From IMG/VR virus record IMGVR_UViG_3300009506_002768, positions 1 through 22,922 of that record: 22,922 nt of DNA; one strand, given 5' to 3'. Both the position numbers and the translations under genes were made by a program. The DNA comes from a virus. The first letter of the stretch is position 1. Each line of letters begins with the position of its first letter. The notes beneath the pieces are model-generated. The model had not been told where the DNA came from. It did not search any database and saw nothing but the letters and a program-made list of their open reading frames with translations. Shown piece after piece: positions 2,273-22,922 of this stretch.

Positions 2273-2275
2273 ATC

Positions 2276-2704: not shown

Positions 2705-2729
2705 GCGCGTATCCATCCACCAGCAAGTG

Positions 2730-2740: not shown

Positions 2741-2744
2741 GCAC

Positions 2745-3479: not shown

Positions 3480-3480
3480 G

Positions 3481-3786: not shown

Positions 3787-3795
3787 GGAAGCTTG

Positions 3796-5397: not shown

Positions 5398-5409
5398 GAG
5401 GATTTCGAC

Positions 5410-5844: not shown

Positions 5845-5848
5845 GATT

Positions 5849-5859
5849 TAGGAGAAACC
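5849..5859 (+). promoter_or_regulatory. Strong ribosome binding site shared in sequence with the tail tube gene
   Basis: TAGGAGAAACC, identical over 11 bases to the site before the tail tube gene at 2730-2740, lies 3 bases before the ATG at 5863. It predicts high translation of the small protein that follows. Confidence 0.65.
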
Positions 5860-5862
5860 ACC

Positions 5863-6282: not shown

Positions 6283-6294
6283 AGGCCTCTCGTC

Positions 6295-6630: not shown

Positions 6631-6635
6631 GTTGC

Positions 6636-9606: not shown

Positions 9607-9608
9607 GC

Positions 9609-11654
9609 ATGTTCAACACCGGCCTGTTCAACACGACGCCGTTCAACGCCGAGCCGAACCTCGGCGATATCGGTCAGGTTGAGCTATGGCTGGAGCAGGT
9701 CTCCGAGGCCGGTACGGGACAAGCGGCGATCCGGATCAGACAGGCAAGCGCGGACTACGGCCAGGGCACATTACTCCTGACCCAGGAGAGCGAGCCCGCC
9801 AACCACACCGTCTCCTTGCTTTTCATTCAGGAGAGTTCCCTGGCCAGGGCCGCCGAGGTCTACCTGCACCAGGCCAGCGAGCCGCTGTCCGCCGGCTACA
9901 ACGCCAGGCGCTCCTGGGAAATCAAGGTCTACATCGACGGTGTGGACTACTCGTCCTACCTGACCGGCCAATGGAGCATCGATGCGGAAGAGGGGATGTC
10001 GCGCATCGCCACGATAAAACTCATGCCCTGGGCGTCGGGCATCGATGTGCTGGAGTTCGTGCGCAAGCCGATCACCATCACCGGCGGCTACTTCTATTCG
10101 GCCACGGCCTCGACGCGCTACCCGCTGTTCAGTGGTCGCATCCTGGAACCGATCTACAGCCTGACGGACCGGCTGATCACCTTCAAGTGTTCCGACCTGC
10201 TCCAAGAGCGGCTTGGGTCAATGACGTTTGCAGGAATCCAGACGGAGGTCGGGGGATTATTCTCGGCCAACGTCTACGGCGAGGAGCTGACCGGTATCGA
10301 GCTCGCTGAACTGCTCTCACTGTCGCAACACGGGAGCTATGACATCGACGTCGACGGGGCAGGGCACTTTGCCGACTGGATCGCCTCATCGGCGCCGGAT
10401 CATCGCTTCGGCAACGCCGACGTGATCGAGGACTCCACGAGCCTGGAGCTGGCAAACGCCCGGGGCATGCACACGGTGACCGAGATCGCCTTCGACTATC
10501 GTTTTACCCGCAAGCGCTATCGGTCATACACCTACGCCTGGGAGATGGAACCCAAGGTCGGGTGCGAATTCTTGCACAATCCGTTTCAACTGCCCCAGAG
10601 AGGCATGATCGAGAGCGCCTGTAACAACACCGCGTGGAGGCTGGAGGCGCTGAGCTTTGAGCCGCTGCCGGAGCCGCAAGTCTTCCACTGCATGCAAAAC
10701 GGCAAGCTCTACCCGATGCCCTGGGGCTACGAGATCCGCAACGCGTCGCTGGTGCCGGACCCGGACATCGAGCTGCTGTGCCAGGGGTTCAGTGCCCGGT
10801 TCTCCAAGCGTTGGGCACAGACCGTCACGGAGCAATACCGGATCACCATCAACGCGAGCAACGCCGGCGCCCTCGGGCGCATCGTGCGTAACCTCGAGAC
10901 CGGGATGGAGACCGAGTTCGACTACGAGGCCTGGGAGGCGGAGCTGGAGCAGGAGGACCGCCACTACCAGAGCGCGGGGGCCTCGATCACCGGGGATCGG
11001 ATCCGCGACGTCGATGACGAGACGCAGATCGACAGAGCCGCGGCGAATGGGGCCATGGAGGCGATTAAGGCCATCGAGACCGGGAGAATGCTGCAGGTGT
11101 TTCGGAAAAACTACGTGACCTTCCGCACGCTGCTCTATCCCGCCATCGAGCGCCATCACCGCGGCGAGGTGACCCTGGACAACCTGGAGGCGGCGGGCAA
11201 GGTCTATCAGGTGCTCCACGCCGGCGACATCGAGACCGGCGACGCCACCACGAGCATCACCCTGGCCCTGTTCCGTCCCGGGGCGGCGGCGATCGAGCGG
11301 GCGGGGGAGGTCATTAACGTCGGCTCACTGAACAAGCCGGACTCCGATGTCGGTACGCCGGATGAAGGACGAAACATGCGGTTCAGCGCCGGGGCGACCC
11401 ACACCCACATCGGCGGCTCCATCGCGAGCCCGACCCTCGATGAGGAGTGGACCGGGTTCTTTACCAATTACGGCTACGACAACTACAACACCCAACCTTT
11501 CAACGTCTACGCGCCGACCGCCGAGATGTATCCGGTGCAATTCATTCTCCCGACACCGGCCATCGAGTCGGAACTGCGCCAGGCGGTGGAGGTGGAGGCA
11601 GACCCGGTATCGGTGGAGGTCACCCTACCGGTCGATAAATTGATCTACTCATAG
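9609..11654 (+). CDS. Baseplate hub / tail-tip protein
   Basis: A 681-residue protein starting 2 bases after the upstream stop. The N-terminus has a 'FNTGLFNTTPFN' motif seen in tail proteins of B3-type phages, then five 14-15 residue repeats with Q-x-S at residues 30, 45, 59, 74 and 88. Residues about 100-200 look like the first domain of gp27/gpD-type hub proteins ('VYIDGVDYSSYLTGQWSIDAEEG', 'YPLFSGRILEP', 'RLITFKCSDLLQERLG'). A long mixed domain follows to about residue 560, and the end has 'YDNYNTQPFNVYAP', again with a PFN motif. Hubs close the tube at the tip and hold the fibres. The hub call is from motif texture and place, not from a match I can verify. Confidence 0.65.
   Translation: MFNTGLFNTTPFNAEPNLGDIGQVELWLEQVSEAGTGQAAIRIRQASADYGQGTLLLTQESEPANHTVSLLFIQESSLARAAEVYLHQASEPLSAGYNARRSWEIKVYIDGVDYSSYLTGQWSIDAEEGMSRIATIKLMPWASGIDVLEFVRKPITITGGYFYSATASTRYPLFSGRILEPIYSLTDRLITFKCSDLLQERLGSMTFAGIQTEVGGLFSANVYGEELTGIELAELLSLSQHGSYDIDVDGAGHFADWIASSAPDHRFGNADVIEDSTSLELANARGMHTVTEIAFDYRFTRKRYRSYTYAWEMEPKVGCEFLHNPFQLPQRGMIESACNNTAWRLEALSFEPLPEPQVFHCMQNGKLYPMPWGYEIRNASLVPDPDIELLCQGFSARFSKRWAQTVTEQYRITINASNAGALGRIVRNLETGMETEFDYEAWEAELEQEDRHYQSAGASITGDRIRDVDDETQIDRAAANGAMEAIKAIETGRMLQVFRKNYVTFRTLLYPAIERHHRGEVTLDNLEAAGKVYQVLHAGDIETGDATTSITLALFRPGAAAIERAGEVINVGSLNKPDSDVGTPDEGRNMRFSAGATHTHIGGSIASPTLDEEWTGFFTNYGYDNYNTQPFNVYAPTAEMYPVQFILPTPAIESELRQAVEVEADPVSVEVTLPVDKLIYS
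9678..9884 (+). repeat. Five 14-15 residue Q-x-S repeats in the hub-like protein
   Basis: Units such as 'LWLEQVSEAG', 'IRIRQASADY', 'LLLTQESEPA', 'LLFIQESSLA' and 'VYLHQASEPL' occur back to back, each a strand ending in Q-x-S. The Gln residues fall at 30, 45, 59, 74 and 88, a spacing of 14-15. This is a protein-level repeat; the DNA copies have diverged. Confidence 0.75.
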
Positions 11655-11668
11655 AGAGGCAATCAGAC

Positions 11669-12256
11669 ATGGCCATCGAAACTGGATTTTTTCTGGACTC
11701 CGGGCTCTCGCAAGCCGCGGTGAGCCGGACGTTTACCCAAAAGGAGGATGGGTCGAGCAACCCCGTGGACGCCCTGCTGTACTTCGGCTGCCCCAACGCG
11801 GCGAAGAAGGCCCAGGCGGAGTCGAATCCGGGCACGGATCCGATCACCCTCAGCCTGGTGACGGCGATCAACCCGTGGGCGGCCTCCACGGCCTACAACG
11901 TCGGCGACATCGTGCAACCGACAGTGGCCAACGGCTACAAATACAAATGTGTTGCTGCCGGAACCAGCGGCGTGAGCGAGCCTACCTGGCCAACGACCCT
12001 CGGGTCTCAATTGATCGATAACGGCGTCACCTGGCTGTGTCTGGACACGATCCATGTGGCAAGCGAGTTTAAGCTGTCCACCTCCCAGGCCGGTCTCGAC
12101 ACCGCGGTGGCCGGCGCGCCCCTCGAGGTGGGCGCGACGCTCAATGGCGGCACGCCGATCTCGATCCACCTCCGCGGTGACCAGGGGATCCATCCGTTCG
12201 GGACCTACAGCGACGTGAAGCTGCAGAGCAACTCGATCCTGGAGACCGCCCTCTGA
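11669..12256 (+). CDS. Tail protein with a carbohydrate-binding-like module
   Basis: A 195-residue protein with a GAGAGG ribosome site before the ATG. The centre (about residues 70-130) holds 'NPWAASTAYNVGDIVQPTVANGYKYKC', then 'GTSGVSEPTWPT' and 'DNGVTWLC'. This is the chitin-binding-like beta module repeated in many phage tail and fibre proteins, in which exposed Trp and Tyr residues can contact sugars. The flanking regions are structural in make-up. It probably belongs to the host-contact apparatus. The gene overlaps the next start by one base (TGATG at 12254-12258). Confidence 0.7.
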   Translation: MAIETGFFLDSGLSQAAVSRTFTQKEDGSSNPVDALLYFGCPNAAKKAQAESNPGTDPITLSLVTAINPWAASTAYNVGDIVQPTVANGYKYKCVAAGTSGVSEPTWPTTLGSQLIDNGVTWLCLDTIHVASEFKLSTSQAGLDTAVAGAPLEVGATLNGGTPISIHLRGDQGIHPFGTYSDVKLQSNSILETAL

Positions 12257-12591
12257 TGGCCATGAGCAAGACCCAACGTCTCGTCGAGGACCTCAAGGCG
12301 CTCATCCGGCGCGAGGCACGCTTGAAGGCCGGGCTGCCGCCCCCCAAGCCCAGGGATGAGATCAAGGCGTCCCGGGGGAAGGGCCAGGCGGCGGTCGTCA
12401 AAGCCAGCGCCCAGGGTGGCCTGGCGTTCCCGCTCACGGAAGATAAAACCAAACGTGTCCTGTATGCCTCGAGGTATCTGTATGACACCAGCGGGCTCTT
12501 CGCCTTTGCCTGGGCGCCGTACAACAAGACCTATTACACGGATGCCGCGGGAAACTCCGGGTACGTGATCCATGCCGATCCCGAAGCCTAA
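12256..12591 (+). CDS. Small basic tail-operon protein
   Basis: A 111-residue protein. The first 60 residues are basic and helical ('RLVEDLKALIRREARLKAGLPPPKP'); the end is aromatic and strand-like ('VLYASRYLYDTSGLFAFAWAPYNKTYYTDAAG'). I do not recognise it. It starts on the upstream stop and its last 20 bases overlap the start of the next gene, so it is part of the same translational chain. A small linker or assembly protein for the large protein that follows is a guess from position. Confidence 0.6.
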   Translation: MAMSKTQRLVEDLKALIRREARLKAGLPPPKPRDEIKASRGKGQAAVVKASAQGGLAFPLTEDKTKRVLYASRYLYDTSGLFAFAWAPYNKTYYTDAAGNSGYVIHADPEA

Positions 12592-14263
12592 AGGCCTGCC
12601 GATCCCCCAGGGGGCGGTGAGATACTGGGGCTTGCCTTACCACGGTCTGGTGCGCAACGGCACCCTGACGCTGCCCAACAATGCGACGATGACCTATCTG
12701 CAGCCGGACAATGGCTCGACCGTCGTCATTAGAAACAAGAAAAAGTCCGGCCTGCCCCTCACGATGCCGATGGCGGCCTACGACGCGGCGCAAGGATTCT
12801 CGTGGCTGACGTTCGCCATCCTGGCCGGCCGAACAAAACAGATCGCCGGGCAAAACCTCGGCGGCAACCGATTCATCTACATCGACCACCGGGATCGGCC
12901 CTGGCTGATGAAGATCTATCCTACGGGGGATCAGTGGACGATCGATGTCGAACGGCGCTTCGGCCTGTTCGGTCAGGACTCTGTCAGTTGGATCAAGAAT
13001 CGGCAGATTTACCTCGGCAACTTCGGTGAGGTGTTTTCCGAGAACCTCGACTATGACGACCTTTGCCAGAACTGGGATGGCTCCTCGGTCCTGCTCAATC
13101 TGCGCAGCCTGCCCGCACGTCCGGGTTACCTGGCCACACTGACGAGAATCGTCGATCTCGCGATCACAACCCGGGATGCCATCCCGGGTAATGATACCGA
13201 TGTTGCATTCAGCGTGGCCCATGGATACTTGATCGACACCGCCGACCTGTACGTCCATGAGTATGCTTCTTGGGGCTCTCAGCCCAGCGGAGGCTATGCC
13301 TGCGGCATGATGAGCGTTGCCAGCGTCCAGTACACCCCGTCAAACCCTCCCGGGTCCTACTGTGGCGAGGGCGCCTACGATGTCGGGTCGTACTCCAGCA
13401 ACGGGTCGATCTCGGGGGTATCGCTTTGGCAGGACTCCTCCTTCGATAGCGGCCTGGATGAGTTCGACCAGCAGGTGATCAAGGCCTACTGGGGGCATGA
13501 CGGAGAGCTCAATATTCTGGACCTGCGGGTGTACCACTCAAAAACGAGTTCAGAAAACGACAGCTGCTCGGCGACCTACGCCGGCAATACCAGCGTCAAC
13601 TTCACCGCGCCGCCGAATGGCAACACTCTGAATGGTAACGCCTGCTCGGGCTACGCCACCTTCAATTGGCAGGTGGCGTTGATCTCGGAGATGGCCTCGA
13701 ACTCCACCATCAACCGGGCCGAGGAGTGGCACGGAGGGCTGTACCTGAACGGCATCCCGGTGATCCGATGGGATTGTGCCGGGACCTGGTACTATCACGG
13801 CTGGAGCACGGTGAGCGGAGGAGGGAATGAATCCGGGTCCTTTGTCGAGAATGAGCCTTCGAATTACAGCACGCTGTTCACAACGGTGAACGGCCAGTGC
13901 CAAAACCTGCAGATCGGCGATCTCCTGACGGTCTCGGGCGTGTCGGATACAGGGTCCAACAACGGCGAGAGTTCCTACTCGACAACGGTGGACGGGAATG
14001 TCTACACCGACCCCGGGGGCGGGCCGATCGCCTGGACCCTACCGCTCATGTTCGTAAAAGCGTATGCCAATAACATCTTCACGCTTCATCTCGGCGATCC
14101 TTCCGACCTCACCCCGCCGGAGTACAACGGCCACTTTGGGATCGTCGCCGAGGGGGCGAAGGTGCAGTCCGGGAAGTTGGCGGAACCCAATATGAATGCA
14201 TCGGTCAACCCGGTGGGCGGCACTTGCACGATCGACACGACAAACAACGTTTGCTATGTCTGA
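12572..14263 (+). CDS. Large distal tail / receptor-binding candidate
   Basis: A 563-residue protein starting at an ATG inside the end of the upstream gene; no strong ribosome site is seen, so translational coupling is likely. It is beta-rich with many Gly, Ser, Asn, Trp and Tyr residues and has no helix-rich part. About ten Cys residues are clustered in the C-terminal two thirds (for example 'GGYACGMM', 'DSCSATY', 'NACSGY', 'WDCAGTW', 'GTCTIDTTNNVCYV'). It is the last large gene of the virion operon, where receptor-binding proteins lie. I recognise no named family; the role is inferred. Confidence 0.65.
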   Translation: MPIPKPKGLPIPQGAVRYWGLPYHGLVRNGTLTLPNNATMTYLQPDNGSTVVIRNKKKSGLPLTMPMAAYDAAQGFSWLTFAILAGRTKQIAGQNLGGNRFIYIDHRDRPWLMKIYPTGDQWTIDVERRFGLFGQDSVSWIKNRQIYLGNFGEVFSENLDYDDLCQNWDGSSVLLNLRSLPARPGYLATLTRIVDLAITTRDAIPGNDTDVAFSVAHGYLIDTADLYVHEYASWGSQPSGGYACGMMSVASVQYTPSNPPGSYCGEGAYDVGSYSSNGSISGVSLWQDSSFDSGLDEFDQQVIKAYWGHDGELNILDLRVYHSKTSSENDSCSATYAGNTSVNFTAPPNGNTLNGNACSGYATFNWQVALISEMASNSTINRAEEWHGGLYLNGIPVIRWDCAGTWYYHGWSTVSGGGNESGSFVENEPSNYSTLFTTVNGQCQNLQIGDLLTVSGVSDTGSNNGESSYSTTVDGNVYTDPGGGPIAWTLPLMFVKAYANNIFTLHLGDPSDLTPPEYNGHFGIVAEGAKVQSGKLAEPNMNASVNPVGGTCTIDTTNNVCYV

Positions 14264-14423
14264 TCAGTTGCAACAGCTAAATCATAGGTCCCACAGCGCG
14301 GACCCGATCAACGAAGGCACCTTCGGCGTGATGGTAGCCGCACTGGGTGACCTGGCGGTGCCGGTACCGCTGGTGGGTGTGGCGGGCTATAAGAAGCTGG
14401 TGCCGCCAGACCTCCCTGTTTGA
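14256..14423 (+). CDS. Short hypothetical protein at the end of the virion operon
   Basis: A 55-residue frame starting at ATG 14256, which overlaps the last 8 bases of the upstream gene. It begins 'MSDQLQQLNHRSHSADPINEG' region and ends with 'VPLVGVAGYKKLVPPDLPV'. A longer frame from ATG 14196 would overlap the upstream gene much more, so the 14256 start is preferred. The tight overlap, as at other junctions here, and the same GC-rich composition support it as a real gene. No family is recognised and no terminator is seen after it. Confidence 0.45.
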   Translation: MSDQLQQLNHRSHSADPINEGTFGVMVAALGDLAVPVPLVGVAGYKKLVPPDLPV

Positions 14424-14449
14424 CAGTCGCCCCATGTCATGATTATCAT
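14420..14449 (+). promoter_or_regulatory. Possible sigma70-type promoter after the virion operon
   Basis: TTGACA at 14420-14425 matches the -35 consensus exactly. TTATCA (14443-14448, 17-base spacing) or TATCAT (14444-14449, 18-base spacing) could be the -10. It overlaps the stop of the last virion gene and points at the Rhs genes with a leader of about 300 bases. Direct but unproven. Confidence 0.4.
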
Positions 14450-14757
14450 AACCGACGTAAAGCCGCTTGTGGCATGTTTATCTGCGATCTACCTAAGGAA
14501 AGTGTTTGATATGGAATGTCGTGTCATTTCTGTTTCGTCACACCCCGCCTTGAAGTTAAAGCCGTTTCCGTTTGGAAGCGTGGTTGCTTTTTGGTACAAC
14601 GTTGCCCCATTAATAACCTGTCGTAAGGTTAGGCTAGATCCCAGGGATTCTTTAAACACTAAATGACAAGGTTTCAAGGAGGAAGTGAGCATTCCTACCG
14701 GAGATCTCTCCTCTCGGTAAACCACACTCTGTTCAAATCCATTTAGGCATCTTTCGC
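14424..14757 (+). other. AT-richer leader between virion operon and Rhs locus
   Basis: This stretch of about 330 bases is clearly more AT-rich than the virion genes before it. It holds the possible promoter above, no gene I can support, and near its end AAGGAGG (14676-14682), followed by a hairpin (TACCG at 14696-14700 pairing with CGGTA at 14715-14719). An outer pairing is also possible (GGTTT at 14670-14674 with AAACC at 14718-14722). The AAGGAGG has no well-spaced ATG after it. The first clear start is the Rhs ATG at 14758, which itself has only a weak ribosome site. Confidence 0.5.
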
Positions 14758-16488
14758 ATGAAGAGACGGACATTCATTTCAGGTTTTCTGTTTTCTATTT
14801 TCTTACTCAACAGTGTCACCGCTGTGGCGGATATGGTCTGTAGCGGTGTGCTGCACCAGTACCTGGATGGAATCTGCGTGACAGGCCCTGATAATGCAGG
14901 CGTATCTGAACACGCCGAAATGGCGCAGCAGGTTGCTGGGGAGATAGCGGAAGTATATGGAGGAGGCTGCAAGACAGTCAGCGGTAGAGGCTTTAGAATA
15001 TACGTTCGCAATTGTACGAAAAAAAAGAGATGCGAGGGATGTACGTCAACATTTTACGTAATCAATTATCCGACTAAGATATACCAAAATCCAGTCTACT
15101 TCGTAACAGCGCATCCCCAGGGGAAACCCGGTATGTGTGAGGGGGATCCCTGTGATCCGGCGACCGGAAAAGTATTTCTCAGGGAGACGGACATAGAGGA
15201 CGTGGGGCATGGCCTGTCATTCGCACGGTACTACCAGTCGAATGCGATGAATGAGGCCAAAGGAAGGATTGGATTCAACTGGAGGCATAGCTATTCCAGT
15301 CAAATCGATGCGCCGCCGGACCCGGAGCATCTGCACCGGCTTCCCATCATACACTCCGGCTATTATGCAACTCGGGAAGAGGCCTGTCTGCAGGGCGGAG
15401 AAAGCATAAAGGCATCGCTCTATGCCGGTAAGGTGGCGGATGCGGTTTTCAGCTATGCGAATAACACCTGCGCACTCTCCGCCGGTGGCCAGGTAGTGGC
15501 GCAACTTGTCATACAGGTTGCCAATACCGAAGCCGGGCCCTCGTTGACAGCCATCACCCACGATATCATCCGTGCTAATGGGGACACCTACCACTTCAGA
15601 TACGAAAATGGAGCCTGGATCAATGAGGGGAGCCCCTCGATCCAGTTGGTAGAGGAGGGTGAGGACTGGGTCTTGACGCTTGCGGATAGATCGACGGAGG
15701 TCTATGGTCCGGACGGACATCTCAAGTATTCGAGCGCGTCGGACGGTAAGAAAACACATTACCAGTATGTGGATGGCCTGCTGCAGACGGTCACCGGTCC
15801 ATTCGGGCACACACTGAATTTTAGCTACACGCAGGGCCGTATCGTGAGTGTCACCGGTCCCGATGGGACGGTCACCTATGACTATGACACCTATGGAAAC
15901 CTCATTCAGGTGACCTATCCCGACAACAGTGTGCGCAAGTACCTCTATGACGATTTCTATCACGTCAACTCACTGACCGGCATTGTTGATGAAAACGATC
16001 ATCGCATTGCCACTTGGACGTATGATCCGCAGGGCCGCGTCGTCATGAACGAACGAGCGGAGGGTGCGGAGCATTACGAATTCACCTACAACGAGGATGG
16101 CACCACGACCGTGAGCGATGGGCAGGGAGGGACGCGTACCTATCGGTTTGATCTCGTGAAGGATGCCTTGAAGTTCGTACAGGTGACAGGAGACCGCTGC
16201 GATACCTGCGGGCATGCGGACGATCAGCTGAGAAGCTACGATGCTCATGGACATATCGCCAGCCGCACCGACTGGAATGGTGTGACGACGAGTTACACAC
16301 GTGATGCAACCGGTCATGAACTGAGCCGCACCGAAGCCTCCGGAACCGAGAAGTCCCGTACCATCACCACCGAGTGGCATGGGGGTTTCAACAAGCCCGT
16401 TCGTATCACGGAACCCGGAAGGATAACGGAATTCCGCTACGACGATGCCGGCCACCTGCTCAGCAAAAGCGAAATACCGGTTCCCTGA
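14758..16488 (+). CDS. Secreted Rhs/YD-repeat protein, N-terminal half
   Basis: A 576-residue protein with a signal peptide at residues 1-25 (KRR, hydrophobic core 'FISGFLFSIFLLNSVTAVA'). A Cys-rich segment follows to about residue 100. Residues about 120-170 hold 'GDPCDPATGKVFLRETDIE', the DUF6531-type entry of Rhs proteins. From about residue 310 there are YD/Rhs repeats ('YDYDTYGNLIQVTYPD', 'WTYDPQGRV', 'FRYDDAGHLLS'). Rhs repeats build a hollow shell that encloses a toxic tip. This half has no core end or tip and stops abruptly at TGA 16486-16488 after 'KSEIPVP'. Its composition is less GC-rich than the half that follows, and the next gene continues the same frame. Exported, probably to the cell surface or periplasm. 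Confidence 0.8.
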   Translation: MKRRTFISGFLFSIFLLNSVTAVADMVCSGVLHQYLDGICVTGPDNAGVSEHAEMAQQVAGEIAEVYGGGCKTVSGRGFRIYVRNCTKKKRCEGCTSTFYVINYPTKIYQNPVYFVTAHPQGKPGMCEGDPCDPATGKVFLRETDIEDVGHGLSFARYYQSNAMNEAKGRIGFNWRHSYSSQIDAPPDPEHLHRLPIIHSGYYATREEACLQGGESIKASLYAGKVADAVFSYANNTCALSAGGQVVAQLVIQVANTEAGPSLTAITHDIIRANGDTYHFRYENGAWINEGSPSIQLVEEGEDWVLTLADRSTEVYGPDGHLKYSSASDGKKTHYQYVDGLLQTVTGPFGHTLNFSYTQGRIVSVTGPDGTVTYDYDTYGNLIQVTYPDNSVRKYLYDDFYHVNSLTGIVDENDHRIATWTYDPQGRVVMNERAEGAEHYEFTYNEDGTTTVSDGQGGTRTYRFDLVKDALKFVQVTGDRCDTCGHADDQLRSYDAHGHIASRTDWNGVTTSYTRDATGHELSRTEASGTEKSRTITTEWHGGFNKPVRITEPGRITEFRYDDAGHLLSKSEIPVP

Positions 16489-16515
16489 ACAAGACCCATA
16501 CTCAAGGATTGTGAC

Positions 16516-17715
16516 ATGTCTCTCCTTCGTCCGTTAAAAACCCCAGGGATACTCCTGCCTGTCGTTTTCGCCCTGGGCTTGAGCGCCGCCCCGGTCCAGG
16601 CCGAGCGCACTACGAGCTATACCTATACCACGCAGGGTCTGGTCACCACGGTGGACGGCCCCCGTACCGATGTGGCGGATATCACCACCTACGACTATGA
16701 CACCCGGGGCAACCGTATTCTGGTGCGCAACGCCCTGGGCCATGAAACCCGCGTCACCGCCCATGACGCCGCCGGCCGTCCCCTGACCGTTGTCGATCCC
16801 AACGGCCTGACCACCCGGCTCAGCTACGACCGGCGGGGCCGCCTGCTGACACAGAGATTCTCCGACGGCATCTCCGCCCGCACCACCGCTTATGCCTACG
16901 ACCCGGCGGGCAATCTCATCCGGGTCAGCGCCCCCGGCGGCGGCGTCCTGAACTATGAATACGACGCCGCCAACCGCCTCATCGGTCTGGAGGACGGCGA
17001 GGGCAACCGCATCGACTACACCCTGGACTCGATGGGTCACCGCCTGGAGAGCCGCATCACCGATGCGGGCGGCGTGCTGCGCAATCGCCAGCGCCAGGCC
17101 TTCAACCAGCTCGGTCGCCTGATCCAAAGCCTCGACGCCCAGGACCAGAGCACCGCCTATGCCTACGACGCCAACGGCAACCTGATCGAGACCACCGACC
17201 CCCGGCAAAACCCCACCCGCCAGGTCTACGACGCCCTGGAGCGGCTACAACAGAGCACCGACGCCCTCGACGGCATCACCCGCTACACCTACGACGCCCA
17301 GGACAACCTCGCCAGCGTCACCGACCCCAACGGCCTGACCACCCGCTACGACTACGATGGCCTGGGCAACCTCCTCAGCCAAACCAGCCCCGACACCGGC
17401 ACCACCACCTACACCTACGACGAGGCGGGCAACCGGCTCAGCCAGACCGACGCCCGGGGCGTCACCGTTACCTACGAGTACGACGCCCTCAACCGCCTCA
17501 CCGCCGTCCACTACCCCGACAGCGCCCTGGACGTGAGCTACGGCTACGACCAGGGCGCCAACGGCCTCGGCCGGCTCACGAGCATGACCGACGCCGGCGG
17601 AACCACCGCCTATGGCTACAACGCCTTCGGCCAGCTCACCGGAAAGACCCGCACCGCGGCCCCATCACCGCCTTCGGCTACGGTTACGACGCCGCCGGGC
17701 GCCTGTCCCGGCTGA
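16516..17715 (+). CDS. Secreted Rhs/YD-repeat protein, middle part, frameshifted at its end
   Basis: It begins with its own signal peptide ('LKTPGILLPVVFALGLSAAPVQA', cleavage expected near residue 29) behind a good ribosome site (AAGGA, 16504-16508). Then come about ten YD repeats ('TYDYDTRGNRILV', 'AYDPAGNLIRV', 'YTYDEAGNRLSQTD'). After 'YGYNAFGQLTGKT' (about 17653) the frame turns into out-of-frame sequence and stops at 17715. The YD pattern goes on in another frame from about 17661, so a base is missing near 17655-17663. The gene should run to 19136. It lies 27 bases after the upstream half, in the same frame, and is markedly more GC-rich. Confidence 0.75.
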   Translation: MSLLRPLKTPGILLPVVFALGLSAAPVQAERTTSYTYTTQGLVTTVDGPRTDVADITTYDYDTRGNRILVRNALGHETRVTAHDAAGRPLTVVDPNGLTTRLSYDRRGRLLTQRFSDGISARTTAYAYDPAGNLIRVSAPGGGVLNYEYDAANRLIGLEDGEGNRIDYTLDSMGHRLESRITDAGGVLRNRQRQAFNQLGRLIQSLDAQDQSTAYAYDANGNLIETTDPRQNPTRQVYDALERLQQSTDALDGITRYTYDAQDNLASVTDPNGLTTRYDYDGLGNLLSQTSPDTGTTTYTYDEAGNRLSQTDARGVTVTYEYDALNRLTAVHYPDSALDVSYGYDQGANGLGRLTSMTDAGGTTAYGYNAFGQLTGKTRTAAPSPPSATVTTPPGACPG

Positions 17716-17735
17716 GCTACCCCTCGGGCCGGGCG

Positions 17736-19136
17736 GTGCTCTACGGCTACGACTCCCAGGGCCGGCTCAACAGCCTGACGCTGGCCAAGCCCGACGGAAC
17801 CCGCCAGCCTCTGGCGCAAAACCTCCAATACCTACCCTTCGGCCCCCTCCAGTCCTTCGACTACGGCAATGGCCTCCATCTCGGCCGCAGCTTTGACCAG
17901 GACTACCGGCTCACAGGACAGACCATCCCCGGCCTCCTGCAGAGCGGCTATCAGTACGACCCGACGGGAAATATCACCCAGTGGCAGGACCTGCTGAACA
18001 CTGGCCGAGACCAACTTTTCGGCTATGACGAACTCGACCGCCTGATCAGTGCCGAAGGGGCCTACGGGGATCTGGGCTACGCCTACGACGCCACCGGCAA
18101 CCGCCTGAGTCTCACCAAGGGGAGCGAGACCCGGAGTTACCACTACGTCCCCGGCAGCCACCGCCTGCAGGAGATCCTAGGCGCTACCACCGACAGTCGC
18201 GGCTACGACGAAGCGGGCAACACGATCGCGAGCCTGATCGGTAGCTACCGCTACGACGCCAGCAATCGGATGACCGGTTTTACGAAGACGGGGACGCAGG
18301 CGGAGTACCTCTACAACGGAAGGGGCGAGCGGATCCAAAAGAATGTCAACGGGACGATTACCCGTTATCGCTACGGAGAGAATGGCGAACTTCTGGGTGA
18401 GTACGACGCCCAGGGAGAGGTGATCCGGGAATATGTCTATCTCGAAGGGCAGCCGTTAGCGCTGGTGACGCCAGCCCTGGCGGGGGTTTATTATCTGCAT
18501 ACGGACCACCTGGGCGCGGTGGTGAAGGCGACGGACAGTAGCCAGGCCTTGGTGTGGGATGCCATTCGCAGGCCTTTTGGGCAGAAGAGCGTAACCACGG
18601 CGCGGATTGAGATGCCGTTGGGGTTCCCGGGACAATACTTCGACGAAGAAACCGGCAACTTCTACAACTACTTCAGAACCTATGACCCCAGCACCGGGCG
18701 TTACTTGGAGAGTGATCCCATCGGTCTTGACGGTGGGTTCAATACCTATGCGTATGTCGGTAACAATCCACTCAGCTATATCGACCCACTGGGGTATGCC
18801 AGACATGGTGGACAAACTGGCCAATGGTGGGAGTATACAGATAGAAATTTCCAGCGTTGGTTTCATCAATGCGTAAAACAACGCGGTGATCCAGATGCTT
18901 CTAGAGAAGATTTAGCTGAGGCTTACGCAGAGTGGGTGCAACTCGGCAAACCAAACGGAAAGAACGGGTGTGGCGGACCACCACCAACGCCTGAACCTGA
19001 ACCTGAGCCTGAACCAAGCCCGTCGCCTGGATGTGGTGAAAATTGTCAACAGGTAGTGAAGGCTGTGAGAAATGCTGCTGGAGTAATTATATTTATACTA
19101 ATAACCGTGTGTACTGGTGGTGCAGCTACTACGTAA
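17736..19136 (+). CDS. Rhs core and variable tip, downstream of the frameshift
   Basis: This is the continuation of the preceding Rhs frame; homology starts at about 17661 ('ITAFGYGYDAAGRLSRLSY'), and the GTG at 17736 has no ribosome site, so it is not a true start. YD repeats continue to about 18600. The Rhs-associated core lies at about 18615-18800, with 'GFPGQYFDEETGNFYNYFRT', 'YDPSTGRYLESDPIGL' and 'NNPLSYIDPLGYA'. The 111-residue tip after it (18801-19133) is AT-richer. It holds 'FQRWFHQCVKQRGDPDASRE', a Pro-Glu run ('PEPEPEPEPSPSP') and a C-terminal hydrophobic segment ('AAGVIIFILITVCTGG'). No named toxin domain is recognised. Type VI or cell-surface Rhs proteins use such tips as effectors; that role is inferred here. 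Confidence 0.75.
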   Translation: MLYGYDSQGRLNSLTLAKPDGTRQPLAQNLQYLPFGPLQSFDYGNGLHLGRSFDQDYRLTGQTIPGLLQSGYQYDPTGNITQWQDLLNTGRDQLFGYDELDRLISAEGAYGDLGYAYDATGNRLSLTKGSETRSYHYVPGSHRLQEILGATTDSRGYDEAGNTIASLIGSYRYDASNRMTGFTKTGTQAEYLYNGRGERIQKNVNGTITRYRYGENGELLGEYDAQGEVIREYVYLEGQPLALVTPALAGVYYLHTDHLGAVVKATDSSQALVWDAIRRPFGQKSVTTARIEMPLGFPGQYFDEETGNFYNYFRTYDPSTGRYLESDPIGLDGGFNTYAYVGNNPLSYIDPLGYARHGGQTGQWWEYTDRNFQRWFHQCVKQRGDPDASREDLAEAYAEWVQLGKPNGKNGCGGPPPTPEPEPEPEPSPSPGCGENCQQVVKAVRNAAGVIIFILITVCTGGAATT

Positions 19137-19148: not shown

Positions 19149-19556
19149 ATGCATAAGTATACCGTTCAATTTAGGATCGAAGGTCACTCATTAGTACCCT
19201 CTGACGTTACAAAAAATCTTGGGTTAATTCCTTGTCAGGTTCGGCTTGGAAATGAACAGGGAAAAAGGCATAGAAAAGCGCTATGGGCATATGATGGTTC
19301 TACAGTAGACTCGACTCAATGTAACGAATGGGATTCTTTGGAAGATGGACTATTAACTGTACTTGGCGATCTGTCATTATTGAAAGATCGAATTGTTTCA
19401 TGCTATAGCCAGTTTGATATGTATTGGTGGTGTGCCCATTTTCAGAATAGTTTTGATGGAGGTCCTACATTTTCTGTTGAACTGCTTGAAGAGCTTGCGA
19501 AATTTGGAGTGCCTTTATATCTCGATAATTATTTTTTCGACGACGAACAGGAATAA
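19149..19556 (+). CDS. DUF4279-type protein, candidate immunity protein
   Basis: A 135-residue AT-rich gene starting 12 bases after the Rhs stop. The layout fits the DUF4279 family: an opening strand 'KYTVQFRIEGHSL' with 'VPSDVTKNLGL', a basic segment with 'KRHRKALWAYDG', a mid helix and an end 'ELLEELAKFGVPLYLDNYFFD'. The function of the family is not established; it occurs in small proteins near toxin and Rhs loci. The lack of a signal peptide indicates a cytoplasmic protein. Directly following a Rhs tip, in the same direction and with the same AT-rich make-up, is the usual place for a cognate immunity gene. The ribosome site is weak (GGTGG, 19138-19142), so coupling to the Rhs gene is possible. 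Confidence 0.65.
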   Translation: MHKYTVQFRIEGHSLVPSDVTKNLGLIPCQVRLGNEQGKRHRKALWAYDGSTVDSTQCNEWDSLEDGLLTVLGDLSLLKDRIVSCYSQFDMYWWCAHFQNSFDGGPTFSVELLEELAKFGVPLYLDNYFFDDEQE

Positions 19557-19582: not shown

Positions 19583-19679
19583 TAAAGGGGGCAGAGTGAA
19601 ACGGGGTCAGAGTCAATGCCATTCAGTTAAAGGGGTCAGAGCCCTTTATGGATAATGATTAAAGGGGTCGAAGCCCTTT
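19583..19679 (+). repeat. Cluster of REP-like hairpin repeats
   Basis: Two perfect 19-base hairpins with AAAGGG/CCCTTT stems lie at 19629-19647 and 19661-19679; the loops differ by a base swap (GTCAGAG and GTCGAAG). Two degenerate or partial copies precede them (TTAAAGGGGGCAGAG from about 19582 and ACGGGGTCAGAG at 19601). Similar AAAGGGGTC..AGCCCTTT elements are found near REP-associated tyrosine transposases in proteobacteria, as I recall; no such transposase is in the window. Confidence 0.65.
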
Positions 19680-19718
19680 ACTGACTGAACAGAAGAAAAG
19701 GAAGAGGATATAGATCAT

Positions 19719-19750
19719 AAAAGCCCCGCCCAGCAAAGAGCGGGGCTTTT
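19719..19750. terminator. Bidirectional rho-independent terminator
   Basis: AAAAGCCCCG (19719-19728) pairs with CGGGGCTTTT (19741-19750) around a 12-base loop; the stem has a U-run on either strand. It separates the + strand Rhs/DUF4279 genes from the - strand SymE-like gene, whose stop lies 4 bases further on. Confidence 0.8.
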
Positions 19751-19754
19751 GCGT

Positions 19755-20009
19755 TCAATCCTCCTCGACGGTCAAGACCAGACAGCCGTGCATGACGCGG
19801 ATGCGCACCGGCATCCGGATATCGAACCCGGCCTGGGCCAGCCATCGGCCTTTCATCTGCAGCCAGGGCACCGGTACCGAGCGGCCCGATGACCGGAACG
19901 GTTCATCCTGGCGAGGCGGATAGTCGTAGAAGGTCTTGCCGACGGTGATGCGTCGTTGGTTGGGGATTTTAACCGGGCGCTCCTTGCCCGTAGAATGGTC
20001 ATCAGCCAT
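19755..20009 (-). CDS. SymE-like protein (type I toxin family fold)
   Basis: An 84-residue protein whose C-terminal half (about residues 45-82) has the SymE pattern: 'VPVPWLQMKGRWLAQAGF', then 'MPVRIRVMHGCLVLTVE'. E. coli SymE has an AbrB-like fold, is SOS-induced and is controlled by the antisense RNA SymR; it acts on nucleic acids. The first 40 residues are basic and look disordered. The start has a good ribosome site (AGGAG 7 bases before ATG on the - strand). It is the downstream gene of an XRE-family regulator 70 bases away, with a hairpin between. The activity of this copy is unknown. Whether an antisense RNA is encoded opposite its 5' end cannot be seen. Confidence 0.75.
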   Translation of the reverse strand: MADDHSTGKERPVKIPNQRRITVGKTFYDYPPRQDEPFRSSGRSVPVPWLQMKGRWLAQAGFDIRMPVRIRVMHGCLVLTVEED

Positions 20010-20041
20010 TGCTCAACTCCTGGTTAGTTGGGTGGTGGTCA

Positions 20042-20076
20042 GCTGAGCCTTGGTGTTCGCAGCACCTTGGCTCAGC
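20042..20076 (-). terminator. Long hairpin between the XRE-family and SymE-like genes
   Basis: GCTGAGCC-tt-GGTG (20042-20055) pairs with CACC-tt-GGCTCAGC (20063-20076) around a 7-base loop, giving two arms of 14 bases with an internal two-base mismatch. It starts 3 bases after the XRE stop on the - strand. No U-run follows, so this may be a partial attenuator, RNA-processing site or binding site instead of a true terminator. Confidence 0.5.
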
Positions 20077-20079
20077 GCT

Positions 20080-20439
20080 TTATGACGCCTGTTGCTGTAT
20101 TACCGCATCAAGCATCTCCATCACGAACTTCTGTTTAGCGCGGGGTAGCTGACCGATCAGCTCGACCTGCCGCTGCAAGCGGGGTGTAGGCCCCCGCTTT
20201 CCTTTAGCTGCTCTGGCTGGTTCGCCGACAATCTCCTCGATGGACACGGCCAGCAGCGTTGCCATCTTAGGCAGCAACGCTACCGGCATCCGCAACCGAC
20301 CCCCTTCATAGTGCGCCATCGTCTGCTGTGCGATACCCAAGGCATCGGCCAACTGGGTCTGGGTCATGCTCTGGGCCTTGCGGAACTGTGCGATCCGCTT
20401 GCCCATTGCCTGGTAGAAGGAGTTGTCTTGAACGGTCAT
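20080..20439 (-). CDS. XRE-family transcriptional regulator (phage repressor type)
   Basis: A 119-residue protein with an N-terminal helix-turn-helix: 'MGKRIAQFRKAQSMTQTQLADALGIAQQTMAHYEGGRLRMPVALLPKMATLLAVSIEEI' region, residues about 12-70, the classic XRE/HTH_3 pattern with 'TQTQLADALGIAQQTMAHYE' as the recognition part. The C-terminal part is basic, then helical ('FVMEMLDAVIQQ'), and may dimerise. The frame is open to 20523, but a start there would lie inside the divergent promoter and operator, so I prefer ATG 20437-20439. It lies upstream of a SymE-like gene and is divergent from the primase gene. It probably represses its own and the primase promoter. Confidence 0.8.
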   Translation of the reverse strand: MTVQDNSFYQAMGKRIAQFRKAQSMTQTQLADALGIAQQTMAHYEGGRLRMPVALLPKMATLLAVSIEEIVGEPARAAKGKRGPTPRLQRQVELIGQLPRAKQKFVMEMLDAVIQQQAS

Positions 20440-20508
20440 GGCGTAAGTCCATTGAGATAACGACGCCATTAGCATATCCCCACTTTTTGCCTCATCGGTT
20501 CGTGATCG

Positions 20509-20540
20509 TTGACAATACTCCATATGAGAGTACTATGCAA
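20509..20540. promoter_or_regulatory. Divergent promoter with inverted-repeat operator
   Basis: For the + strand, TTGACA (20509-20514) and TACTAT (20531-20536) lie 16 bases apart and point at the primase gene. For the - strand, TTGCAT (20535-20540 on the complement) and TATTGT (20512-20517) lie 17 bases apart and point at the XRE gene. Between the boxes lies the inverted repeat TACTC-N7-GAGTA (20516-20532). A further TACTC half-site lies at 20554-20558. A repressor bound here would cover both promoters. Confidence 0.55.
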
Positions 20541-20604
20541 CGGAGTTATTTTATACTCTGAACTATTGACAGGGTTTTGGCGATAATCCCGAAAAGGAGA
20601 CGAT

Positions 20605-22922
20605 ATGGCCCGCATCCCGGAAGAGCAGATCGAACGGCTAAAACAGGAAGTCTCCCTCCATCGTCTGGTCGAGGGGATGGGCATCAGCCTCAAGCGCCAC
20701 GGATCAGACCTGATCGGGCTGTGCCCCTTCCACGACGACCATGAACCGAGCCTGGTGATCAGTCCGCAGAAGAATCTCTGGCACTGCCTCGGGGCCTGCC
20801 AAACCGGAGGATCGGTCATCGACTGGGTGATGAAGGCCGAAGGGGTCAGCTTCCGCCACGCGGTGGAGCTGCTGCTGGCGGATTACAGTCCCTCTTTAGT
20901 CGCGGAGAGTGGCCCGGTGAAACACGCCACCATACGGAAATTGCCCACGGCGCTGGAGGCGAGCGCCGAGGATGCGCGGCTGCTGAATCAGGTGATCGAC
21001 TACTACCACGAGACCCTGAAGCAGAGTCCGGAGGCGCTGGCCTACCTGGAGAAGCGCGGCATCGCCGACGCCGAGGCCATCGATCGCTTCAAGCTGGGCT
21101 TTGCCAACCGCGGCCTGGGCTACCGGCTGCCGGCGAAGAACCGCAAGGAGGGTGCGGCGATCCGGGGCCAGCTGCAGCGCATCGGCCTGTTGCGCGGCAG
21201 TGGTCACGAACACTTTAGCGGCTCGCTGGTGATCCCGGTGCTCGACCCCCAGGGACAGGTCGCCGAGGTCTATGGCCGCAAGCTCAACGACCACCTGCGC
21301 AAAGGCACGCCGATGCACCTCTACCTGCCGGGACCCCATCAAGGGGTCTGGAATGAGGCCGCCCTGCAGGCCTCGAAGGAGATCATCCTCTGCGAATCAC
21401 TGATCGACGCCCTGAGCTTCTGGTGCGCCGGTTTTAAAAACGTCACCGCCAGCTACGGCATCGAAGGTTTTACGCCGGATCATCTGAAGGCCTTTAAAGA
21501 ACACAACACCGAGCGGGTGCTGATCGCCTACGACCGGGATGCCGCCGGCGAGGCGGCAGCCGAGAAGCTGGCCAAGCAACTGATGGTCGAAGGGATCGAT
21601 TGCTACCGCATCCACTTCCCCAAGGGGATGGACGCCAACGAGTACGCCTGCCAGGTCAAACCGACGGGCAAGAGCCTGGGGGTGGTGATCCGCAGTGCGC
21701 TCTGGCTGGGCAAGGGGAAGGCCAAGCCCGTGACCACCGAAGCGGTGGACGTGTCGTCGATACCGCCATCGATCGCTGAACCCGCACCGGTTAGCGCAGA
21801 CGAACCCATCACCCCTTTAGTCGCCAATCTCGAACTTGTATCGGAACCCGACCCTTTACCCGCCGCCGTCATCCCAGAAGCCTCCCAGCCCGAGATCCCC
21901 GCCGAGGTGAGCGATCGCGAGGTGACCCTCACCCTGGGCGACCGTCGCTACCGCATCCGGGGCCTGGAGAAGAACCTGGCCTATGACGCACTGAAGATCA
22001 ACCTGCTGGCCTCGCGCCCCGCTCTGGACGGCATAGGCGAAGTGGTGCATGTGGACAGCTTCGATCTCTACCAGCAGCGCCCGCGCAGCGTCTTTATCAA
22101 ACAGGCCGCGATCGAGCTGGGTGTAAAAGAGAGCGTCATCAAGGCCGACCTGGGCAAGCTGCTGCTGAAGCTGGAGGCGCTGCAGGCGCAACGGATCGAA
22201 GCGGCCCAGGCCCCGAAGGAGCCGAGCGTTACCCTCGACGACGCCGCGACCCAAGCCGCCCTGGCGCTGCTGCGATCCCCCGACCTGCTGGAACGCATCG
22301 AGCAGGACCTGACCCGCTGCGGTGTGGTGGGCGAAGCGACCAACAAACAGGTGGCCTACCTGGCCGCGCTCTCGCGCAAACTCGACCGGCCGCTGGCGGT
22401 GACCATCCAGTCTACCTCGGCCGCCGGCAAGTCCTCGCTCATGGATGCGGTACTGGCTCTGGTGCCGGAAGAGGATCGCATCAAATACAGCGCCATGACC
22501 GGCCAGAGTCTGTTTTACATGGGCGAGACCGACCTGCAGCACAAGATCCTGGCCATCGCCGAGGAAGAGGGTGCGAGCAATGCTGCCTATGCGCTAAAGC
22601 TGCTGCAATCCGAGGGCGAGCTGACCATCGCCAGCACCGGCAAAGATCCCACAACCGGAGAACTGAAGACCCAGGCCTACCAGGTAAAAGGCCCGGTGAT
22701 GATCCTGCTGACCACCACTGCTATCGACGTGGATGAAGAGCTGCTCAACCGCTGCCTGGTGCTGACGGTGGACGAGGGCCGAGCCCAGACCCAGGCGATC
22801 CACGCCGCGCAGCGGGACCGGCGCACCCTGCAAGGCCTGCTGGCCAAGGCCGACAAGCAGGCGATCCTGAACTTACACCAAAACGCCCAGCGACTGCTGC
22901 AACCGCTGGCGGTGGTCAATCC
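20605..22922 (+). CDS. Phage/island-type DNA primase with C-terminal P-loop domain, partial
   Basis: The frame is open from ATG 20605 to the right edge (at least 772 residues); AAGGAG at 20594-20599 is the ribosome site. Residues 36-69 form a CHC2 zinc finger with Cys40, His43, Cys61 and Cys65. A TOPRIM domain follows, with Glu264 in 'ILCESLIDAL' and Asp310/Asp312 in 'IAYDRDAAGEAA'; both are the expected metal-binding acidic residues. Residues about 375-430 are a Pro- and acid-rich linker. The C-terminal part has a Walker A motif 'TSAAGKSSLMD' (Lys609) and an acidic strand 'ILAIAEEEG', so an ATPase or helicase-like domain. DnaG-type primases end with a DnaB-binding domain instead. It would lay primers and perhaps unwind DNA for replication of the phage or island. 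Confidence 0.85.
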   Translation, partial: MARIPEEQIERLKQEVSLHRLVEGMGISLKRHGSDLIGLCPFHDDHEPSLVISPQKNLWHCLGACQTGGSVIDWVMKAEGVSFRHAVELLLADYSPSLVAESGPVKHATIRKLPTALEASAEDARLLNQVIDYYHETLKQSPEALAYLEKRGIADAEAIDRFKLGFANRGLGYRLPAKNRKEGAAIRGQLQRIGLLRGSGHEHFSGSLVIPVLDPQGQVAEVYGRKLNDHLRKGTPMHLYLPGPHQGVWNEAALQASKEIILCESLIDALSFWCAGFKNVTASYGIEGFTPDHLKAFKEHNTERVLIAYDRDAAGEAAAEKLAKQLMVEGIDCYRIHFPKGMDANEYACQVKPTGKSLGVVIRSALWLGKGKAKPVTTEAVDVSSIPPSIAEPAPVSADEPITPLVANLELVSEPDPLPAAVIPEASQPEIPAEVSDREVTLTLGDRRYRIRGLEKNLAYDALKINLLASRPALDGIGEVVHVDSFDLYQQRPRSVFIKQAAIELGVKESVIKADLGKLLLKLEALQAQRIEAAQAPKEPSVTLDDAATQAALALLRSPDLLERIEQDLTRCGVVGEATNKQVAYLAALSRKLDRPLAVTIQSTSAAGKSSLMDAVLALVPEEDRIKYSAMTGQSLFYMGETDLQHKILAIAEEEGASNAAYALKLLQSEGELTIASTGKDPTTGELKTQAYQVKGPVMILLTTTAIDVDEELLNRCLVLTVDEGRAQTQAIHAAQRDRRTLQGLLAKADKQAILNLHQNAQRLLQPLAVVN

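What the first reader, a model, noticed from the sequence alone, without database searches (positions are those of the whole stretch)
19755..20540. SymE-like gene as second gene of a repressor unit divergent from a primase
SymE genes are usually studied as stand-alone SOS-induced genes under an antisense RNA. Here a SymE-like gene is downstream of an XRE-family regulator whose promoter overlaps that of a primase, with an inverted-repeat operator (TACTC-N7-GAGTA) between the boxes. This suggests SymE-like function within an element's switch, perhaps tied to replication control or to host shut-down.
Basis: partly seen in the sequence, partly recalled or inferred. Interest (0 to 1): 0.5.

Follow-up and report, generated by a model that had tools for sequence, protein, structure and literature searches.

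The report
Antisense-guarded toxin in Rhs-tip mobile element
A small toxin-like gene, apparently silenced by its own antisense RNA, sits beside the repressor of a mobile element that seems to carry interchangeable toxin tips into bacterial weapon genes; the gene arrangement was noted in 2007, but its double control and its link to tip exchange look new.

Summary
In detail: a SymE-family gene (19755-20009, -) follows an XRE gene (20080-20469/20523, -) whose promoter overlaps that of a primase (20605 to record end, +) around TACTC-N7-GAGTA. In relatives the symmetry recurs there with different complementary arms, as expected of an operator. The arrangement itself is known: Kawano 2007 drew SymE with Cro/cI genes, a primase-helicase and RHS genes, but proposed repressor OR antisense control. 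Here both occur: a SymR-like antisense RNA lies at 20004-20083 (+), with strong covariation and a -10 box inside symE. Relatives add an XerC-like recombinase after the primase and often adjoin Rhs or other large toxin genes. Several join Rhs abruptly at core/tip codons (YNY or DPIGL), two are small circular plasmid records, and in E. coli an old tip lies 19 kb downstream of new ones. I infer an element that swaps Rhs tips, with SymE as an accessory DNA-binding brake or shut-down protein released when XRE repression fails; classical addiction is weakened because E. coli SymR is very stable. Operator, SymR and junctions rest on comparison; recombinase action, replication and SymE function are inferred. 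The window ends inside the primase, so its recombinase is unseen.

The parts
14758..19136 (+). RHS toxin region, in three open frames (14758-16488, 16516-17715, 17736-19136)
   Evidence: Pfam RHS_repeat in all three, DUF6531 in the first, RHS domain in the third
18663..18800 (+). RHS core/tip boundary YNYFRTYDPSTGRYLESDPIGLDGG...DPLGY; predicted left junction of the element
   Evidence: Same motif is the junction in L002, L004, L027, L017; window sequence. Predicted, not shown, for the window
19149..19556 (+). DUF4279 gene, candidate immunity gene of the RHS tip
   Evidence: PF14106 E 3e-6, 27.9 bits against 25; position after the tip; role inferred
19710..19759 (.). G+C-rich inverted repeat flanked by A and T tracts: likely two-way terminator between immunity gene and symE
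   Evidence: terminator-like site called on the - strand
19755..20009 (-). SymE-family gene, 84 aa
   Evidence: PF08845 E 1.5e-17; 51% identity to the L015 protein
19969..19996 (+). putative symR promoter TTAACC-N16-TAGAAT inside the symE frame
   Evidence: TA...T at the same offset in 13 of 13 symE starts tested
20004..20083 (+). SymR-like antisense RNA over the symE start codon and leader
   Evidence: RF01809 35.6 bits, E 9.1e-6, model 1-77 of 77, below the Rfam cut-off of 61; own model 76.2 bits, window in its training set; covariation; fold z -5.35
20080..20523 (-). XRE-family repressor gene; start probably at 20469
   Evidence: HTH_31 1.7e-9, HTH_3 4.8e-8
20509..20536 (+). primase promoter, back to back with the presumed XRE promoter
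   Evidence: similar sequence in L081/L087
20516..20532 (.). operator TACTC-N7-GAGTA
20566..20571 (+). TTGACA 39 nt upstream of the primase start, conserved, role unknown
   Evidence: TTGAC within 60 nt of the start in 55 of 62 distinct regions
20605..22922 (+). CHC2/Toprim primase, presumably primase-helicase, truncated by the record end
   Evidence: full relatives about 850-1350 aa

Best explanation
The region is one end of a mobile element that carries Rhs-type toxin tips. Its full form, seen in relatives, is: short Rhs core end, toxin tip, immunity gene, <-symE (with antisense symR), <-xre, divergent from primase->, XerC-like tyrosine recombinase->. The XRE protein binds the inverted repeat in the overlapping promoters and holds down both the primase and its own xre-symE message (operator supported by comparison, binding inferred). 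SymE translation is held down a second time by the SymR antisense RNA made from a promoter inside symE (structure and promoter supported by comparison, activity inferred). When XRE repression is lifted, the primase copies the excised circle and the recombinase joins the circle to the core/tip codons of an rhs gene; the new tip is fused in frame and the old tip pushed downstream (junctions and displacement seen in sequences, enzyme action inferred). SymR acts as a threshold: SymE appears only when xre-symE transcription outruns it. SymE then binds DNA and slows replication and transcription, as a brake on the element or a shut-down of the host (inferred from E. coli SymE; I give this role about 0.4, addiction about 0.3).
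For: XRE stands divergent from the primase in 50 of 51 primase starts with at least 450 nt upstream (window included); a tyrosine recombinase follows in 24 of 36 with at least 4300 nt downstream, and all 12 misses are loci with only a partial primase match. Operator axis in 11 aligned promoters: 3.91 of 5 pairs, next best axis 2.82, median 1.27. SymR on 15 sequences: 89.7% of 387 cells paired, 17 of 26 pairs with changes on both sides, covariation 0.593 against at most 0.190 when slid; antisense strand 89.7% paired, sense strand 71.6%. No SymR hit in 17 element loci without SymE, 264 kb. Order tip or Rhs fragment - downstream gene - SymE - XRE<>primase in L070, the L. populi circle, the S. flexneri circle and E. 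coli rhs arrays; L015 likewise with a DUF4291 gene behind SymE. Abrupt junctions at YNY codons in L002 twice, L004, L027, L017 and at GAYCCGATAGGG = DPIG in E. coli, Shigella and L. populi. L017 has identical 77-base ends that meet at the junction. E. coli A35 against SCU-113: old immunity gene and symE lie 19 kb further downstream. Element and SymE co-occur in 4 of 7 SymE genomes among 274.
Against: The window ends inside the primase: its recombinase and right junction are not seen. Only 2 of 44 primase starts with enough upstream sequence carry SymE, one of them the window. In a second sample 0 of 16 new symE loci (3 kb each) had the primase, 5 had Rhs. Rhs-like sequence in 22 of 43 primase loci with enough flank, by a crude motif. 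Of 17 loci tested for repeats around the element, 9 had toxin-core repeats; L012, L083, L084 none, L007 a weak one, L014 others, L021, L022, L026 too little sequence. In L037 and L043 the repeat begins upstream of YNY. The E. coli insertion's right edge is an ISEc1 copy. Rfam SymR is below cut-off in the window. E. coli SymR is very stable (passages; section 16), which speaks against a short-lived antidote. Small circles can be assembly products of tandem arrays. SymE model too poor to use, pLDDT 52.
Confidence: 0.62

Rival explanations
1. A prophage immunity switch: XRE is a CI-like repressor of a phage replication operon and SymE a phage-borne host shut-down gene.
For: The record is a virus record with head and tail genes in its first 14 kb; XRE weakly resembles the phage repressor RstR.
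Against: No relative of primase, XRE or SymE was confirmed in viral contigs (these scans reach close relatives only), and the phage collection gave only partial primase matches below 60% identity and 3 distant SymE hits. Relatives sit on plasmids and in rhs loci, with no head gene among the features listed.
Confidence: 0.12
2. SymE is a passenger of the Rhs cassette rather than of the XRE unit; XRE only provides read-through.
For: E. coli VCSW7 and A35 have rhs-immunity-symE without XRE or primase; the slot behind XRE holds VbhA, ORF6N, ParE, DUF genes or unknown genes in 10 other loci scanned.
Against: The XRE-symE order with SymR over the symE leader recurs in the window, L015, L057, L066, L070, L080 twice, L081, L087 twice and L088.
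Confidence: 0.3
3. SymE/SymR is a plain type I addiction module that keeps the element in the cell.
For: Kawano 2007 suggests that SymE systems are selfish and maintain themselves by toxin-dependent killing (section 17); elements carry other toxin-antitoxin pairs.
Against: E. coli SymR showed almost no decrease 60 min after transcription was stopped, unlike Sok (section 16).
Confidence: 0.3
4. Tips are displaced by RecA recombination alone and the recombinase only resolves multimers of the circle.
For: Tandem units identical over kilobases; Jackson 2009 proposed homologous recombination with circles (PMC2935791, passages); homologues are annotated XerC; repeats of L037 and L043 extend upstream of YNY.
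Against: Abrupt junctions at the same few codons in unrelated species with a similar element end; L. populi tips carry only about 25 codons of core.
Confidence: 0.3

Closest known systems
SymE gene neighbourhoods of Kawano 2007 (PMC1891008, Fig. 7A legend and text; passages)
   Same: SymE in predicted operons with a Cro/cI regulator; primase-helicase (DnaG-type plus MCM-like AAA+), RHS and haemagglutinin genes among the neighbours: the arrangement of the finding was already in print
   Different: There, genes with a regulator were taken to be under transcriptional control and those without one under sRNAs; here XRE-linked symE genes also have SymR. No recombinase, junction or tip exchange in the passages and sections read
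SymE/SymR of E. coli K-12 (type I system)
   Same: PF08845 protein; antisense RNA of two strong hairpins over the symE leader; antisense promoter inside symE (PMC1891008, passages and section 16)
   Different: Here second gene of an XRE unit; no LexA-like site found at the promoter; 84 aa against 113
rhs C-terminal displacement by episomal circles (Jackson 2009, PMC2935791)
   Same: New tip fused to the core, old tip pushed downstream, circular intermediate (passages)
   Different: [quoted passage not shown] here a tyrosine recombinase and a primase belong to the unit
Orphan CdiA-CT/CdiI and Rhs-CT modules (Poole 2011, PMC3150448)
   Same: Tips mostly without start signals, bounded by VENN or PxxxxDPxGL motifs (passages)
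   Different: No carrier named in the passages read; mechanism of exchange called unknown
rAID of Bacteroidales (PMC12247911)
   Same: Tyrosine recombinase beside orphan immunity genes (passages)
   Different: Immunity arrays; no XRE<>primase or toxin tips in the passages read
SymE beside T6SS/Rhs or CDI clusters (PMC7764402, PMC11278526)
   Same: symE next to polymorphic toxin genes (passages)
   Different: Treated as separate toxin systems in the passages read

Membership tests
SymE family (PF08845) | Score over Pfam cut-off | tested here: met
   63.8 bits against 29
SymE equivalog of E. coli (NF010128) | Score over NCBIfam cut-off | tested here: not met
   41.5 bits against 132: a SymE-family protein, not the E. 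coli equivalog
SymE/SymR type I system | Antisense RNA over the symE leader with the conserved fold | tested here: met
   Covariation and position; by sequence only, no transcript; Rfam score 35.6 is below the gathering score of 61
SymE/SymR type I system | LexA box at the promoter | tested here: not met
   CTGT-N8-ACAG with up to 1 mismatch: only at 19371, not at the promoters
SymE/SymR type I system | Growth inhibition relieved by SymR | not testable with these tools
   needs expression in a laboratory strain
XRE/Cro-CI repressors | HTH domain over cut-off | tested here: met
   HTH_31 38.2 against 27, HTH_3 33.4 against 23
RstR phage repressor (NF041951) | Score over cut-off | tested here: not met
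   59 bits against 80
DnaG primase (TIGR01391) | Score over cut-off | tested here: not met
   183.9 against 283.6; CHC2 and Toprim domains over cut-off
rhs tip-displacing circle | Recombinase and right junction in the same unit | tested here: inconclusive
   seen in relatives; the window is cut in the primase
rhs tip-displacing circle | Core/tip boundary motif upstream of tip and immunity gene | tested here: met
   18663-18800; DUF4279 gene behind the tip

The most novel reading that the evidence does not exclude
A widespread self-copying integrative element (XRE repressor, primase-helicase, XerC-like recombinase, optional SymE/SymR) is dedicated to moving toxin tips: it inserts site-specifically at the core/tip codons of rhs and other polymorphic toxin genes and so supplies the integrase and stable circle that the displacement model lacked. 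Each element has its own repressor-operator specificity, so that two can sit in one array without repressing each other, and SymE is gated by repressor and antisense RNA at once.
Probability: 0.5. Interest if true: 0.82.

Novelty: new variant of a known kind. Interest (0 to 1): 0.6.

Why it matters
How bacteria exchange the toxic ends of Rhs and CDI weapons has been open since C-terminal displacement was described. An element with its own replication gene and recombinase, joining at the codons that bound the tips, makes the question testable with a reporter in a laboratory strain. It also corrects an either/or view of 2007: SymE genes behind a Cro/cI regulator can keep the SymR antisense RNA as well, so two locks of different kinds guard one small protein.

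Tried and rejected
Viral-contig scans with SymE, primase and XRE gave no confirmed relative. Phage-collection searches gave only distant hits. LexA control: not supported. Window-only test of the inverted repeat: not above shuffles, so comparison was used; two of the 11 aligned rows, L004:3492 and L040, score only 2 and 1 of 5 at the common axis. Rfam RF00043 (plasmid R1162 antisense RNA) on the - strand of the same stretch, 34.7 bits: rejected because G-U pairs favour the + strand. RF01809 was listed for L015, L080 twice, L057, L066, L085, L055 and not for L081, L059, L070, L086, L089 searched in the same calls. Structure of SymE: pLDDT 52, no fold search made. Addiction by a short-lived SymR was my first choice for SymE; on checking, E. 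coli SymR proved to be reported as very stable, so I moved the weight to a threshold-gated brake or shut-down. The same check showed the 2007 gene map, so I lowered the claim of novelty and the interest. Rows dropped: 2 of 71 hits skipped for missing starts, 69 kept, 62 distinct of at least 100 nt; in the SymR alignment A3, 15 of the 24 symE genes printed were used (L070 re-placed; L087_2 left out because it repeats L081; L087_1, L088_2, L060, L063, L074, L076, L077, L078 left out because the start was misplaced or unclear or no SymR-like leader was seen, which favours the structure); the -10 box was read in 13 of those 15. In one search, 20 of 45 sources gave SymR hits; five sites were not used to build the model (L061, L072, L073 and two in the overlapping loci L091/L102); 25 sources gave none (L060, L062, L063, L067, L071, L074-L079, L090, L092-L099, L101, L103-L106), nor did the solitary symE genes of L087 (6861) and L088 (17766): SymR is not general to symE genes.

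Full report
What is there. The window is a 22,922-base virus record with phage head and tail genes in its first 14 kb, an RHS region at 14758-19136, a DUF4279 gene at 19149-19556, then on the - strand a SymE-family gene (19755-20009) behind an XRE gene (20080-20523), divergent from a CHC2/Toprim primase that runs off the end. From the sequence the XRE promoter would lie back to back with it, with TATTGT on the other strand over the primase -35 box; the promoter scan did not call it.

Is the inverted repeat an operator? In the window alone a repeat of this quality is not above shuffles (56 of 100), and over 62 distinct regions 13 pass at 5 of 100, where about 3 are expected. But 11 distinct XRE-primase intervals share a GTTATTTT anchor, and in them one symmetry axis gives 3.91 of 5 complementary arm pairs; the next best axis gives 2.82 and the median is 1.27. 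Two of the 11 rows score low at that axis. The arms differ from element to element (TACTC/GAGTA, GTACCACG/CGTGGTAC, TTACCCC/GGGGTAA, CTACGCCA/TGGCGTAG) and keep complementarity, as expected of repressor-operator pairs that diverge. Two neighbouring elements in one locus, L004, have different operator sequences.

The antisense RNA. By computation, Rfam's SymR model matches the + strand at 20004-20079 over its full length, 35.6 bits, E 9.1e-6 in a 111-base search, below its curated cut-off of 61. Higher scores, also below cut-off, lie at the same place in L015 and twice in the Lonsdalea circle and in L057, L066, L085 and L055. The two-hairpin structure was counted on 15 sequences: 89.7% of 387 cells paired, 17 of 26 pairs with changes on both sides, covariation 0.593 against 0.043-0.190 for slid structures, 0 of 500 shuffles as high on any measure. 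The structure came from the window's own fold adjusted by eye, and the 15 sequences were chosen from 24 (see Tried and rejected); both lean the counts. Pairing is better on the antisense than on the sense strand, 89.7% against 71.6%, with 74 G-U cells against 4 A-C cells. A TA...T -10 box lies at one fixed offset inside the symE frame in 13 of 13 genes tested, as in E. coli, where the symR promoter is embedded in symE (PMC1891008, passages). A model built from the alignment finds five SymR sites not used to build it (L061, L072, L073, two in L091/L102) and none in 17 element loci without SymE, 264 kb in all. 25 of the 45 sources searched gave none, so SymR is not general to symE genes.

The element. 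A pattern scan of one genome for each of 84,980 species with the primase gave 49 loci in Proteobacteria, Riflebacteria, Myxococcota, Acidobacteriota and others. XRE stands divergent in 50 of 51 primase starts with enough upstream sequence and a tyrosine recombinase follows in 24 of 36 with enough downstream sequence; the 12 misses have only partial primase matches (Phage_integrase over cut-off in the two recombinases scanned). Catalytic-type motifs (meaning recalled) are complete in 6 of 8 recombinases and two of three in the other two. Only 2 of 44 carry SymE: the window and L015. In 10 other loci scanned the slot behind XRE holds ORF6N (3), VbhA, ParE, DUF6717, DUF4258 or no known domain (3). 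A SymE-led search in the class of L015 found SymE, XRE and primase together at L057, L058 (= L015), L066, L070 and, with a SymE remnant, L072, of 23 loci. In that sample of 274 genomes SymE occurs in 7, the primase in 10 and both in 4 (hypergeometric 3e-5, 5e-4 without the sample's centre, 0.011 also without a primase fragment). In the order-level sample (SymE over cut-off in 11 of 195 genomes) none of 16 new 3-kb loci had the primase; 5, on four contigs, had Rhs and 3 an XRE gene. SymE is thus accessory to the element and also lives without it.

Cargo and junctions. Two small circular plasmid records hold the unit: Lonsdalea populi, 11,289 bp, with two tip-immunity-SymE-XRE<>primase copies (one primase shorter), one XerC and a RelE/DinJ pair, and Shigella flexneri, 8,758 bp. 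In E. coli the primase-XerC part occurs in 55 of 5,426 complete genomes, 199 places, all chromosomal; in the two loci I opened it lies in an rhs array between pptA and ansP. In five junctions from four genomes (L002 twice, L004, L027, L017) the end of the element meets Rhs sequence abruptly at the codons YNY of YNYxRxYDPxTGRYxxSDPIGL; in E. coli, Shigella and Lonsdalea at GAYCCGATAGGG, the codons of DPIG. In L037 and L043 the repeat begins further upstream, and one E. coli cassette carries a longer core piece of about 480 bases after an ISEc1 copy. The window's Rhs has the same boundary at 18663. Contig L017 (Paraglaciecola) has identical 77-base ends that coincide with the junction, as a circle or a tandem array would give. 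Of 17 loci tested for repeats around the element, 9 had them in toxin-core sequence (L002, L004, L009, L015, L017, L027, L037, L043, L082); L012, L083 and L084 had none, L007 a weak one, L014 repeats of another kind, and L021, L022, L026 had too little sequence. In L082 the neighbouring toxin is a two-partner secretion protein and in L015 another large protein: the cargo is not only Rhs.

Displacement seen. E. coli A35 has rhs-immunity-symE. SCU-113 has the same rhs core, then 19 kb with new tips, immunity genes, SymE-XRE<>primase-XerC twice (one primase with an internal stop) and ISEc1, then the A35 immunity and symE genes under identical protein accessions; alignment blocks 1-7234 to 9096-16334 and 7219-15107 to 35290-43178. 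The left edge lies at the core/tip boundary; the right edge is an ISEc1 copy. The rhs core of SCU-113 is annotated with an internal stop.

Mechanism and status. Supported by comparison: operator, SymR, unit structure, junction positions, displacement. Inferred: XRE binding, primase-driven copying, recombinase-driven joining, SymE action. For SymE I prefer a DNA-binding brake or shut-down protein released when xre-symE transcription outruns SymR. E. coli SymE is reported to bind DNA and condense the nucleoid with no RNase activity found (PMC11894785, passages; Thompson 2022 itself not read). E. coli SymR is in tenfold excess and very stable and was suggested to act as a titrator (PMC1891008, passages and section 16). 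That weakens classical addiction, although the same paper suggests that SymE systems are selfish and keep themselves by killing (section 17).

Known or new. The gene arrangement is in print: Kawano 2007 describes SymE operons with a Cro/cI regulator and shows a DnaG-type primase-helicase, RHS and haemagglutinin genes as neighbours (PMC1891008, passages; figures not held). It holds that symE genes with a regulator are most likely under transcriptional control and those without under sRNAs; SymR in XRE-linked genes is a refinement of that view. symE beside T6SS/Rhs or CDI genes was noted again later (PMC7764402, PMC11278526; passages). [quoted passage not shown] exchange of CDI tips was called mechanistically unknown in 2011 (PMC3150448, passages); integrases near orphan CDI modules and XerC/D near polyimmunity loci have been mentioned (PMC4927057, PMC3482391; passages). 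In ten searches of the open library I saw no paper that ties the XRE<>primase-XerC unit to tip exchange, nor SymR in XRE-linked symE genes; I read passages of 12 papers only, and subscription papers are mostly not held. I rate it a new variant of a known kind.

Noticed in passing
window 20566-20571 and the same place in relatives: A TTGAC, often (C/T)TTGACAG.TTTT, lies 24-40 nt before the primase start in 50 of 62 distinct regions across phyla (within 60 nt in 55, recount); too close to the start for an ordinary -35 box, possibly a replication or binding site.
   Followed up: partly
window 19627-19680: Two copies of a 22-base palindrome-like repeat (TTAAAGGGGTCAGAGCCCTTTA and a 91% copy) between the immunity gene and the terminator.
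   Followed up: no
L081 1651-2127, L089 8066-8584, L080 9376-9479: Rfam models Ssr1 and isrA match antisense to symE genes, below their cut-offs: these named sRNAs may be antisense transcripts of symE cassettes.
   Followed up: no
window 14758-19136: The RHS region is in three frames; the second (16516-17715) starts with a signal-peptide-like stretch of its own, so there may be more than one RHS gene or a decaying one.
   Followed up: no
L025 6005-6541, L021 368-910, L037 6923-7468, L082 10696-10938: The slot behind XRE holds an ORF6N-domain gene (three loci) or a VbhA-type antitoxin in place of SymE.
   Followed up: partly
plasmids search, Leptospira records: 13 Leptospira plasmid records hold a related primase, 42-48% identical, not all full length; not examined.
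   Followed up: no
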